Below, piece after piece: positions 1,013-5,232 of a stretch of 6,435 nt of DNA (positions are counted from its first letter, which is position 1; each line of letters begins with the position of its first letter). Position numbers and translations under genes: made by a program. A model generated the notes under the pieces. The model did not search any database, had not been told where the DNA came from, and saw nothing but the letters and a program-made list of their open reading frames with translations. The stretch is from Candidatus Mcinerneyibacteriota bacterium (lineage in GTDB: Bacteria; AUK180; JAQVHJ01): the NCBI GenBank assembly GCA_030630935.1, contig DAOVMD010000184.1:1-6435 (forward strand), in the 5' to 3' direction.

Positions 1013-1041
1013 TTGATTTTACTGAAAATATATGGTATAAT
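1013..1041 (+). promoter_or_regulatory. Extended -10 promoter of the cyclase gene
   Basis: The -35 TTGATT (1013-1018) and a perfect -10 TATAAT (1036-1041) are 17 bases apart. TGG immediately before the -10 makes it an extended -10. Transcription is expected near 1048, with a leader of about 23 bases. A modest Shine-Dalgarno site, AAAGAG (1057-1062), is eight bases from the ATG at 1071. No regulator site is obvious. Confidence 0.7.
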
Positions 1042-1070: not shown

Positions 1071-4000
1071 ATGAAGAATTTAATACCTGGTTTTATAGTT
1101 AATAATTTTAAGAAGGGGAAATTACAGGGTAAATTTAAATCCACAGTAATGTTCATTGATATCGTAGGATTTACGGATATGACCCAGAGACTGATAGTGC
1201 ATGAGAAAGAGGGCATTGAAGTTTTAACCGATATCCTGAACGATATCTTTGGAGGATTAATAAACCTTATATATAATCACAATGGGTGGATAGGTAAGTT
1301 TGAGGGCGATGCTTTTACTGTTTTTTTTAATGATGATAATTTTCAAGATCATTATCAATTGACCAAAAGTATTCAGGATTTCATAAAAAGCTCAGGCAGG
1401 GTTAAAACAGACCAGGGAACCTTTAGATTGAATATTAGAATAGGTGTTGGTGTCGGTGATGTTACTTGGAGAATTTTAATAACAGAATCAAGAAATATTT
1501 TTTACTTTAAAGGAGCAGGAATAGAAGATTCATATAAAGCAAAGAAAAAATGTAAAGCAGGTGAAATCTATTTAAGTAACGGTTTTAAAAAGATATTAAG
1601 TTCAAATAAGAAAACAAGATGGGTTGATAGTAAGATATCCAGTAAAATTACTTACAAGAAGAAAGAACTTTTGAACTTTATTCCGGAAAAGATTTTAAAC
1701 TTTACTGGTCAGGGCGAGTTTAGGGATGTAGTTTCTATCTTTGTTTCATTTGATTTTGAGGAAAAGGTATTTGACGAGTTCATTCAATTTTACTTAAAGG
1801 AATTGACGAAATACAGTGGTTACCTAAATAAACTTGATTACACTGATAAAGGTCCTATCTTACTTACAGTTTTTGGTGCTCCATTCGGGTTAGAACACCT
1901 GGTTTTTAATGCTCTTGACTTCTGTTTAAGTGTTCAGAAAAAGTATCCTGAACTTGCTTTTGGTCTAACCCGTGGTACGGTTTATGCCGGTTTTATCGGA
2001 ACTCGGAAACAAGGCGAGTACACCATCATAGGAGATGAGGTGAATCTATCAGCCAGATTGATGGAGATCGCAAAACAAGGTGAAATTTTGACGGATGCTG
2101 AAATCTTCAAGACTACTTCCGGTAAATTTTCTTTTGAAAATTTTGGAAATAAAAAGCTAAAGGGATTCAAGGAGAGATTTCCGGTTTATAGATTAATGAA
2201 GAAAGAACCCGGTTTTGAACAGGATTTTTTCAGTGGTCCTTTAATTGGCAGGAAAACTGAGCTCAAACTATTAATAAAAAGTCTTGATGCCTTGAAGAAT
2301 GGAAAAAACGCCGGTATTGTTTATATAGACGGTGACCCCGGGATTGGTAAGAGTAAGCTGGTACATGCTTTTTTCAAAGAACTTGATATGAAAAAATATT
2401 ACCGGTTTATATGTCGGAATGACCCGGTTCTTAAAAAACCATTTAATCCCTTCATATATTTTTTAACCGGATATTTTAATTTAAACGATGATGACTCTAT
2501 TGAGAAGCGGAAGGAGAAGTTTCTTAAAAAGTTCTCAACTTTTATAGCGAAAATTCCTGATTCACAGATAAGTTCCCAACTGATTAAATTTAGAGAAGCG
2601 CTTGGCTCTTTATTAAATCTTAAATGGGAAGATTCTCTATTTGAAAAGCTTGATGCAGAGACTAAGTACAACAATATGATTGCCGGTTTGAAGCTGTTTA
2701 TTAAAGGTCATTCATTAATAAAACCGGTGATAATTGAATTTGAAGATGCACATTGGTCAGACCTTGATTCTCAGGGCATTGTCAGATCTCTCACCATTAA
2801 TACACTGGGCTTTCCTATTTTGATTTTAATAATATCCCGATATTTAGATGACGGAAAACCTTTTCGTGTTGAGGGTTTATCTCAAGATATACATGTTAAT
2901 AGCATTAACCTTGGATTATTATCTATCATTGACCTGAAAAAATTGGTTAATACTAACCTGGAATATCCGGCATCGAATAAGCTTCTGGATATAATACAGA
3001 AAAAGAGTGAATATAACCCATTCTTTATTGAACAAATTATTCTATTTCTAAAAGAATCCGGAGTCCTTAAAAAGGGAAGGGACAACTGTACCATTTTGAA
3101 AAAAAGTAATTTCAAAATTCCCAGAAAAATAAATAATATAATTATCTCAAGGATAGATCGTTTGAGTGAAAGTTTAAAGAGAATTATCAAAACCGCATCT
3201 GTAATAGGCAGGGAATTTTCAGTTCTATTATTATCAAGGATACTGAAGAATGAAGATATCACGGATGCTTTAGAAAAAATCGAAAATGAATCTATCTGGT
3301 TATCCCTGTCAGAACTTCACTATCTATTTAAACATATTCTTATCCGGGATGCAGTTTATGAGATGCAGTTGAGAAAGACATTACGAAAACTTCACCTATC
3401 TGTTGCACACGGATTAGAGAAACAATATAAAGGAAATCTGAAAAATTATTACCAGGACCTTGGTTTTCATTATGAAAAAGGGGGGGACATTGTAAAGGCG
3501 ATGAAATATTACAGGTTGGGTGCAGAGTTAGCTGAAAAAGATTATAAAAATCAACAAACAATATATTGTTATAATAAATTACTTGAATATGCAAAAAAGC
3601 AGGATGAAAAATGCATAATAAGAAATAAGCTCGCGCCAATATATTATTTTATTGGCAATGTAACAGAAGCAGAGAAATTATTTAAAAAAAATCTAAAAGC
3701 ATTAAAGAGAACTAAGAAGTTGAAATTATTAGCTGAAACTAAATTATATTATAGTGACTTTTTAAGGAACATAGGTAAGTATGATCTTGCTCTGGAATTA
3801 TTAGAAGATTCAAAGAAAGTTTTCAAGAAACTGCATGATAAATCAAAATATTATGAAACCTTATCTAGTATAGGATCAGTTTATTTAAGGAGAGGGATGA
3901 CTGATAAAGCATTGAAACATTTTAATAAGGCCTATGAATATTCTATTAAAGAGAAGAATATAGAATTAGAAAATGATCTACTGGGAAAGTTGGGAGTCAT

Positions 4001-4943
4001 TGAATATTATGACGGTAATACCAATAAAGCTTATAAACATTTTAAAAGAATGAAAAAACTTTCAGAAAAACTTATAGATCCTGAAGGAGCGCTATTTGCT
4101 ACTGTTTGTATTGGTAATACGTATTATGCACGATATGATTTCGAAACTGCACTTGAATATTATAAAAAAGCAATGTTCGAAGCAATAAATATAAATGATA
4201 TTTCATTAATAGGTGCTTTACATAATAATATAGGTGGAATCCTATATAATCAAGGAAATTTTCAAGAATCAATCAAATTTTATGAGAAATTACTTGAGCT
4301 TTCAAAAGAAACAAATGATAAATTCAGTTTTAATTTAGCAACTTTCAATTTGGGAAATATATTTGTAGATTTAGAAGATTTTGAGAAGGGGTTTGGATAT
4401 TATACTAAAAGTTTGAAAATATCAAAGGAACTTGGAGATTTATATATGGTAGCTTTGGTTTTAATGAGTTTAGGGAAACTATACAGATACCTCAATGATT
4501 CTAAAAATGCGAAAAAGTGTTTTAAGAAATCTATTAACCTGGCTTTAAAGAGTAAAACTAATGCTTTAATTGGTGATATCCTTTTCCGATTCGAAGAATT
4601 TTATATCTATGAAAAGGAATTAAATGAAGCGATGAAACTTTTTAAGAGAGTAAGAGCTTACTTAAAGGATACTGATTACTGGAGTGAAAATTTTGATTTA
4701 ACGATGTTGAGAGTGATATTTAAATCATTTAATGATAAAAATGGCGCAAAAGCGGATTTATTAAATATGTTAAAGTCTTCTTCGTCAGACCTTGAGATTG
4801 CACTATTAAACTATGAATTATTTAATATTACAGGTAAAAATAAATACAAGTCTGGGGCATTAAAGATTTATAAGAAACTTTATCGGCAAATCCCATTCTA
4901 TAAATACAAATTTAAGATTAAGGAACTTGAATCTAGCTTCTGA
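1071..4943 (+). CDS. Soluble adenylyl cyclase-like protein: tandem class III cyclase domains, STAND/AAA ATPase, TPR array
   Basis: This is a 1290-residue cytoplasmic protein with no signal peptide or membrane segment. First cyclase domain C1 (about 20-175): FIDIVGFT (28-35) with Asp30 and KFEGDA (76-81) with Asp80, the two expected metal ligands. Second domain C2 (about 218-376): DKG Lys260, EYT Thr318, Asn325 and Arg329 within YTIIGDEVNLSARLM, the adenine-recognition and transition-state positions. ATPase (about 388-790): Walker A GDPGIGKS (421-428), Walker B ending in Glu558-Asp559 of EDAHW, then NPFFIEQ (649-655) and IGREF (712-716). TPR helices run from about 795 to 1200, ending in a short C-terminal region. 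The order C1-C2-ATPase-TPR is that of animal ADCY10 (about 1610 residues), so ATP to cAMP conversion is inferred; Lys/Thr rather than Glu/Cys at the base-recognition positions favours ATP over GTP. The ATPase and TPR parts probably regulate or scaffold the cyclase. It has its own promoter and no operon partner. A seven-G run at 3480-3486 lies in the reading frame. Confidence 0.9.
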   Translation: MKNLIPGFIVNNFKKGKLQGKFKSTVMFIDIVGFTDMTQRLIVHEKEGIEVLTDILNDIFGGLINLIYNHNGWIGKFEGDAFTVFFNDDNFQDHYQLTKSIQDFIKSSGRVKTDQGTFRLNIRIGVGVGDVTWRILITESRNIFYFKGAGIEDSYKAKKKCKAGEIYLSNGFKKILSSNKKTRWVDSKISSKITYKKKELLNFIPEKILNFTGQGEFRDVVSIFVSFDFEEKVFDEFIQFYLKELTKYSGYLNKLDYTDKGPILLTVFGAPFGLEHLVFNALDFCLSVQKKYPELAFGLTRGTVYAGFIGTRKQGEYTIIGDEVNLSARLMEIAKQGEILTDAEIFKTTSGKFSFENFGNKKLKGFKERFPVYRLMKKEPGFEQDFFSGPLIGRKTELKLLIKSLDALKNGKNAGIVYIDGDPGIGKSKLVHAFFKELDMKKYYRFICRNDPVLKKPFNPFIYFLTGYFNLNDDDSIEKRKEKFLKKFSTFIAKIPDSQISSQLIKFREALGSLLNLKWEDSLFEKLDAETKYNNMIAGLKLFIKGHSLIKPVIIEFEDAHWSDLDSQGIVRSLTINTLGFPILILIISRYLDDGKPFRVEGLSQDIHVNSINLGLLSIIDLKKLVNTNLEYPASNKLLDIIQKKSEYNPFFIEQIILFLKESGVLKKGRDNCTILKKSNFKIPRKINNIIISRIDRLSESLKRIIKTASVIGREFSVLLLSRILKNEDITDALEKIENESIWLSLSELHYLFKHILIRDAVYEMQLRKTLRKLHLSVAHGLEKQYKGNLKNYYQDLGFHYEKGGDIVKAMKYYRLGAELAEKDYKNQQTIYCYNKLLEYAKKQDEKCIIRNKLAPIYYFIGNVTEAEKLFKKNLKALKRTKKLKLLAETKLYYSDFLRNIGKYDLALELLEDSKKVFKKLHDKSKYYETLSSIGSVYLRRGMTDKALKHFNKAYEYSIKEKNIELENDLLGKLGVIEYYDGNTNKAYKHFKRMKKLSEKLIDPEGALFATVCIGNTYYARYDFETALEYYKKAMFEAININDISLIGALHNNIGGILYNQGNFQESIKFYEKLLELSKETNDKFSFNLATFNLGNIFVDLEDFEKGFGYYTKSLKISKELGDLYMVALVLMSLGKLYRYLNDSKNAKKCFKKSINLALKSKTNALIGDILFRFEEFYIYEKELNEAMKLFKRVRAYLKDTDYWSENFDLTMLRVIFKSFNDKNGAKADLLNMLKSSSSDLEIALLNYELFNITGKNKYKSGALKIYKKLYRQIPFYKYKFKIKELESSF

Positions 4944-4967
4944 AAGGCATATGTTGTGTTATTGTAG

Positions 4968-4987
4968 AGACGTGCCACGGCACGTCT
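4968..4987. repeat. GC-rich perfect hairpin with CACG centre
   Basis: AGACGTGC-CACG-GCACGTCT is a perfect 8-bp stem around a four-base loop, 25 bases after the cyclase stop codon. It is the strongest hairpin in the spacer and could act as an mRNA 3' end barrier. There is no T-run after it, so calling it a rho-independent terminator is not justified. It may be a dispersed intergenic repeat; its CACG centre matches that of the hairpin at 26-52. Confidence 0.55.
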
Positions 4988-4991
4988 GATA

Positions 4992-5170
4992 GTTCAACAG
5001 TTAAAAATGTTGCATGAGTTCAAAAGTTAAAACAGGCCTTGATAGTTCAATAGTTTAAGTGTTAATAAGGCGTTTAAGTGTTCATGAGTTGAAATAGTTA
5101 AATTGTTCAAGTGTTATAAAAACCGTTAAAATGTTAAAGATGTGGAGATAGTTAAACTGTTTAAGTGTTA
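4992..5170 (+). repeat. Degenerate octamer tract, consensus GTTNAANN
   Basis: GTT recurs at 4992, 5000, 5009, 5018, 5026, 5045, 5053, 5061, 5072, 5080, 5088, 5097, 5105, 5113, 5125, 5133, 5151, 5159 and 5167. Most steps are 8 bases and a few are 9; the longer gaps are 11, 12, 18 and 19. Typical units are GTTTAAGT (three copies), GTTCAAGT, GTTCAATA and GTTAAAAT. It is not a CRISPR: there are no long identical repeats and no spacers. Two units also occur on the minus strand at 152-167. Confidence 0.75.
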
Positions 5171-5190
5171 TCGTTTTGCTTCTCTCCACT

Positions 5191-5232
5191 TCTGCTCTCT
5201 GTTCTCTGCTCTCTGCTCTCTATTTTCTGTTC
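5191..5232 (+). repeat. 7-nt pyrimidine tract (TCTGCTC)
   Basis: Six consecutive seven-base units keep register: TCTGCTC, TCTGTTC, TCTGCTC, TCTGCTC, TCTATTT, TCTGTTC. On the minus strand this is a purine-rich GAGCAGA repeat read just downstream of the DUF498 gene. Confidence 0.7.

What the first reader, a model, noticed from the sequence alone, without database searches (positions are those of the whole stretch)
1071..4943. Bacterial protein with the full domain order of animal soluble adenylyl cyclase
C1 cyclase, C2 cyclase, P-loop ATPase and TPR follow in the order of ADCY10 (family knowledge), and all signature motifs are readable in the sequence. Tandem, non-identical cyclase domains in one bacterial polypeptide are less common than single-domain homodimers. 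This makes it a candidate relative of the ancestor of the eukaryotic enzyme and a possible intracellular bicarbonate, pH or energy sensor.
Basis: partly seen in the sequence, partly recalled or inferred. Interest (0 to 1): 0.6.

Follow-up and report, generated by a model that had tools for sequence, protein, structure and literature searches.

The report
Bacterial soluble-adenylyl-cyclase-type (sAC-like) protein
This bacterial gene encodes a predicted cAMP-making enzyme built like the human sperm enzyme ADCY10, with two unequal catalytic halves, an ATPase switch and a repeat sensor; the two share ancestry, but the design is widespread and already known in bacteria, and the human enzyme's bicarbonate-binding arginine is missing.

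Summary
The ORF at 1071-4943 (+) encodes 1290 aa: cyclase C1, cyclase C2, STAND-type P-loop ATPase and TPRs. Among solved structures, human ADCY10 is the best cyclase match by far, and C1 and C2 match its C1 and C2 in order. In trees, human C1 groups with the bacterial C1 domains and human C2 with the bacterial C2 domains, apart from single-domain cyclases. So the tandem pair very probably has one origin.

(1) It is not rare: I found the tandem core in 44 of 386 sampled genomes (about 30 family codes), with 10 copies in this genome. Double-cyclase sAC-like enzymes are documented in bacteria (Kobayashi et al. 2004, Chloroflexus). (2) This protein lies in a bacteria-only subfamily; human sAC lies on the side of other bacterial subfamilies. 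(3) The bicarbonate-binding Arg176 of human sAC is Tyr155 here and absent in all 80 bacterial doubles compared.

Best model: one asymmetric C1/C2 active site makes cAMP. The STAND ATPase and divergent TPRs gate it in response to an unknown ligand or partner. cNMP-binding proteins in the genome receive the signal. Activity and ligand are inferred. It is a new member of a known kind.

The parts
1071..4943 (+). sAC-type class III nucleotidyl cyclase gene, 1290 aa (P0001)
1013..1041 (+). promoter-like site TTGATT-17-TATAAT, 30 bases upstream of the ATG; a consensus match only, such sites being no more frequent in the window than in shuffled sequence
1140..1607 (+). C1 cyclase domain (residues 24-179): metal aspartates D30 and D80 (= sAC D47, D99), K76 (= K95), Y155 (= R176)
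1608..1712 (+). C1-C2 linker (residues 180-214), shorter than the human one
   Evidence: inferred
1713..2210 (+). C2 cyclase domain (residues 215-380): K254 (= K334), DKG motif at 259-261, T318 (= T405), N325 (= N412), R329 (= R416)
2238..3140 (+). STAND-type P-loop NTPase (AAA_16) region, residues 390-690; Pfam match 390-575, C-terminal limit inferred
2331..2354 (+). Walker A GDPGIGKS (421-428)
2730..2762 (+). Walker B-like IIEFEDAHWSD (554-564)
3588..4580 (+). TPR array (residues about 840-1170), the proposed sensor; among the parts most divergent between paralogues

Best explanation
It is a bacterial soluble-adenylyl-cyclase-type enzyme. C1 and C2 of one chain pair to form one complete active site: C1 gives both metal-binding aspartates, and C2 gives the base-recognition Lys/Thr and the catalytic Asn/Arg. 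The mirror site lacks catalytic residues. The STAND ATPase with its TPR superhelix acts as an ATP-dependent switch: the TPR part binds a signal (partner protein or ligand, unknown), and the ATPase changes conformation and releases or aligns C1/C2 to make cAMP. Proteins with cNMP-binding domains in the same genome then read the cAMP. Shown: domains, residues, common ancestry of C1 and C2 with human sAC, paralogue pattern, presence of possible receptors. Inferred: activity, ATP as substrate, switch mechanism, signal.
For: Domains. Best solved cyclase match ADCY10, C1 and C2 in order. A profile of 39 bacterial doubles matches human sAC in one continuous stretch, E 7e-65, against 1.7e-34 for CyaB. 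Active-site residues: D47 and D99 in 80/80, N412 79/80, R416 78/80, all kept in the window protein; the first metal Asp is missing from the C2 domains compared (38 bacterial plus human), and C1 lacks the Asn/Arg pair, so there is only one site. Trees: human C1 within the C1 group (100/100) and human C2 within the C2 group (97-100), still present at 100 and 91-97 after removing catalytic and motif columns. STAND motifs. Engine parts of the six window-subfamily paralogues are 40-45% identical while TPR and tail are 22-24%, as expected of one engine with varied sensors. cNMP-binding domains: 6 in the genome, one a CRP-like regulator with an HTH domain directly after a single-cyclase STAND-TPR gene. 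Human full-length sAC is described as having a predicted STAND domain with a P-loop: PMC12802110.
Against: No activity data. Single-sequence structure models failed (mean pLDDT 34 and 43), so the C1/C2 geometry is not modelled. No gene next to the window gene, and none seen in the paralogue flanks examined, links it to a cAMP pathway. Only 3 of the 6 cNMP-binding domains keep an Arg at the place of the cAMP-phosphate-binding Arg of CRP-type domains (read by eye). Human full-length sAC showed no isoform-specific response to the nucleotides tested (PMC12802110), so the ATPase switch is unproven even there.
Confidence: 0.75

Rival explanations
1. It is a bicarbonate, CO2 or pH sensor like mammalian sAC, with bicarbonate binding at the mirror site of C1/C2.
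For: K95 is kept as K76. A Chloroflexus sAC-like cyclase is reported as bicarbonate-activated (Kobayashi 2004, cited in PMC11006738).
Against: The second bicarbonate residue, R176, is Tyr155 here and Arg/Lys in 0 of 80 bacterial doubles. Sea urchin and salmon sACs, which lack one of the pair, do not respond to bicarbonate but to pH (PMC12867704).
Confidence: 0.15
2. The product is cGMP or another cyclic nucleotide and not cAMP.
For: The Dictyostelium homologue of mammalian sAC is a guanylyl cyclase (Roelofs et al. 2001, title seen). Base-recognition residues vary in the family: K334 in 38 of 80, T/S405 in 71 of 80.
Against: The window protein keeps the Lys/Thr pair (K254, T318) of class IIIb adenylyl cyclases.
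Confidence: 0.15
3. The tandem cyclase plus ATPase/TPR architecture arose independently in bacteria and in the ancestor of ADCY10.
For: STAND-TPR parts are widely shuffled, and single-cyclase STAND-TPR proteins exist in the same genome.
Against: Human C1 groups with bacterial C1 and human C2 with bacterial C2. Placing human C1 with single-domain cyclases is rejected (AU p 0.025), but for human C2 it is only disfavoured (p 0.093). Shared C2 signature NK-x4-DKG.
Confidence: 0.07
4. It is an anti-phage signalling protein (STAND sensor coupled to a cyclase, Pycsar-like).
For: Weak PycC matches in the C1 domain (1e-8) and a TPR model match; STAND ATPases are common in defence.
Against: The PycC matches are far weaker than the ADCY10 match and reflect the shared cyclase fold. 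No effector gene next door. Ten scattered paralogues in one genome.
Confidence: 0.06

Closest known systems
Human soluble adenylyl cyclase ADCY10 (sAC), PDB 4clf and related entries
   Same: Tandem C1-C2 with one asymmetric active site, all main catalytic residues, C2 NK-x4-DKG signature; P-loop/STAND region after C2 (the human one by literature).
   Different: Only distant sequence similarity in the cyclase domains; R176 of the bicarbonate site absent; shorter C1-C2 linker; 1290 aa against a 187-kDa protein; C-terminal homology not compared.
Chloroflexus aurantiacus sAC-like cyclases (Kobayashi, Buck and Levin 2004, Dev Genes Evol 214:503)
   Same: Bacterial; from memory of the abstract: two cyclase domains and similarity to sAC through the C terminus.
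   Different: Reported to be bicarbonate-stimulated; sequences not available here, so no direct comparison.
Single-domain class III cyclases (Spirulina CyaC 1wc0, Pseudomonas CyaB 3r5g, PDB 2w01)
   Same: Same catalytic fold.
   Different: Homodimers with two equal sites (family knowledge); they fall outside the C1 and C2 groups.
TOMM system kinase/cyclase fusion proteins (TIGR03903)
   Same: Cyclase followed by ATPase/TPR; partial match of residues 321-846.
   Different: Score 116 against a cut-off of 706, and an N-terminal kinase that this protein lacks; not a member.

Membership tests
sAC-type (ADCY10-like) class III cyclases | Two non-identical cyclase domains in tandem in one chain | tested here: met
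sAC-type (ADCY10-like) class III cyclases | C1 and C2 related to sAC C1 and C2 respectively | tested here: met
   whether human is nested in or sister to the bacterial groups is unresolved (AU p 0.28-0.65)
sAC-type (ADCY10-like) class III cyclases | One complete site: two Asp in C1; Lys, Thr, Asn, Arg in C2 | tested here: met
sAC-type (ADCY10-like) class III cyclases | P-loop (STAND) NTPase after C2 | tested here: met
   homology to the human NTPase region not compared
sAC-type (ADCY10-like) class III cyclases | Long C-terminal region homologous to that of ADCY10 | not testable with these tools
   TPRs are present, but no ADCY10 C-terminal sequence was available
Bicarbonate-binding (mammalian-type) sAC | K95 and R176 both present | tested here: not met
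   K76 present, Tyr155 in place of R176
sAC-type (ADCY10-like) class III cyclases | Adenylyl cyclase activity | not testable with these tools
   needs an enzyme assay
TOMM kinase/cyclase fusion (TIGR03903) | Score over the curated cut-off, with N-terminal kinase | tested here: not met
   115.7 against 705.75 bits; the protein starts with C1

The most novel reading that the evidence does not exclude
The sAC-type C1-C2 pair arose once, in bacteria. It radiated there into many paralogues that share an engine but carry different TPR sensors and mostly lack the bicarbonate site. Eukaryotic sAC is one branch of this radiation, in which bicarbonate sensing was gained later.
Probability: 0.4. Interest if true: 0.5.

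Novelty: new member of a known kind. Interest (0 to 1): 0.3.

Why it matters
It shows that the two-domain sAC design is broad and multi-copy in bacteria, with the catalytic halves already specialised as in humans. That makes the origin of ADCY10 and of its bicarbonate site testable with bacterial enzymes, and gives many natural sensor variants on one engine. The single gene in this window is ordinary within that family.

Tried and rejected
Genome-contig scan with the whole protein found only a TPR match in Fulvivirga, so named bacterial relatives could not be listed. Bacterial 16S was not found in the incomplete genome; sigma factors were used instead. Roelofs and Van Haastert 2002 and Kobayashi 2004 are not held; only citations of them were read. 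Membership in the TOMM kinase/cyclase family was rejected; a Pycsar role was considered and judged unlikely. No conserved neighbour genes were seen near the paralogues examined.

Full report
What is there. The window is one whole contig (C436) of a 3.16-Mb, 80% complete bacterial genome in 471 contigs; sigma-70 factors show that it is a bacterium. The ORF at 1071-4943 (+) encodes 1290 aa. Pfam finds two cyclase domains, an AAA_16 P-loop ATPase and TPRs. Upstream lies a histidine phosphatase; downstream, on the other strand, a DUF498 protein and an NT5C-like phosphatase. None of these points to a cAMP pathway.

Closest structure. Residues 1-400 match human ADCY10 at 4e-25, C1 to C1 and C2 to C2 in order; the next different protein is CyaB at 6e-16. 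A profile of 39 bacterial double-cyclase proteins matches human sAC in a single continuous stretch at 7e-65, against 1.7e-34 for CyaB.

Active site. Human residues were numbered from the PDB sequence printed (check). Over 80 distinct bacterial doubles, D47 and D99 are kept in 80, N412 in 79, R416 in 78, T/S at 405 in 71 and K334 in 38. The window protein has all of them: D30, D80, K254, T318, N325 and R329. The first metal Asp is missing from the C2 domains compared, and C1 lacks the Asn/Arg pair. So there is one asymmetric site, as in sAC. Sixty-eight of the 80 have D47, D99, T/S405, N412 and R416 all complete.

Bicarbonate. Human sAC binds bicarbonate through K95 and R176 (PMC12867704). The window has K76 and Tyr155. 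R176 is never Arg or Lys in the 80, and K95 is Lys in 16. The same paper shows that sea urchin and salmon sACs, which lack one of the pair, respond to pH and not to bicarbonate. However, a Chloroflexus enzyme is reported as bicarbonate-activated (cited in PMC11006738), so a response by other means is not excluded.

Ancestry. In a tree of 38 C1, 38 C2, 27 single-domain cyclases and human C1 and C2, human C1 sits in the C1 group (100/100) and human C2 in the C2 group (100/98). Removing catalytic columns or whole motif neighbourhoods leaves both splits, at 100 and 91-97. In a smaller set, joining human C1 with the single-domain cyclases is rejected (AU p 0.025); for human C2 it is not formally rejected (p 0.093). 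Bacterial C1 alone or C2 alone as a clade is not rejected (p 0.28-0.65), so nested versus sister is open. In a concatenated tree the window protein lies in a group of 28 bacterial proteins (100/98), while human lies with ten other bacterial proteins, two of them from this same genome; human is a long branch joined to another long branch there, so its exact neighbour is unsure.

How common. The tandem core covers nearly the full profile in 44 of 386 sampled genomes, spread over about 30 family codes (my count; a lower bound, since few candidates per genome were scored, and the sample is not random). Counts with all candidates scored: 10 in this genome, 3-15 matches in nine other genomes. Among six window-subfamily paralogues, the cyclase and ATPase parts are 40-45% identical and the TPR and tail 22-24%. 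This fits one engine with different sensors.

Downstream. The genome has six cNMP-binding proteins: among them a CRP-like regulator placed directly after a single-cyclase STAND-TPR gene, and a ZIP-type transporter with a cNMP-binding domain. By eye, three of the six keep an Arg at the place of the cAMP-phosphate-binding Arg.

Precedent. [quoted passage not shown] 2004, and that sAC is widely distributed in prokaryotes and eukaryotes. From memory, the 2004 abstract describes three Chloroflexus enzymes with two cyclase domains and similarity through the C terminus. So the architecture in a bacterium is known.

Verdict. Real, correctly read, homologous to sAC in C1 and C2, but a new member of a known kind. 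The bicarbonate idea is weakened; the mechanism (one C1/C2 site gated by STAND-TPR) is the best inference and untested.

Noticed in passing
G000, many contigs: PF00211 matches lie on more than 20 contigs of this 3.16-Mb genome, ten of them sAC-type doubles; a large lineage-specific expansion of class III cyclases.
   Followed up: partly
L121 1578-2276 (G000:C465): CRP-like regulator (cNMP-binding plus HTH_Crp_2) directly after a single-cyclase STAND-TPR gene; a likely cyclase-receptor pair.
   Followed up: partly
L123 362-1654 (G000:C300): ZIP-type transporter with an inserted cNMP-binding domain, a possible cAMP-gated metal transporter.
   Followed up: no
window 4950-5230: Intergenic stretch of AT-rich near-repeats (gttaaaa, gttcaagtgtt) followed by a polypyrimidine ctctctg run.
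   Followed up: no
L152 1669-3609 (G000:C380): A protein-kinase-like gene and an HslV-like gene near one of the double cyclases.
   Followed up: no
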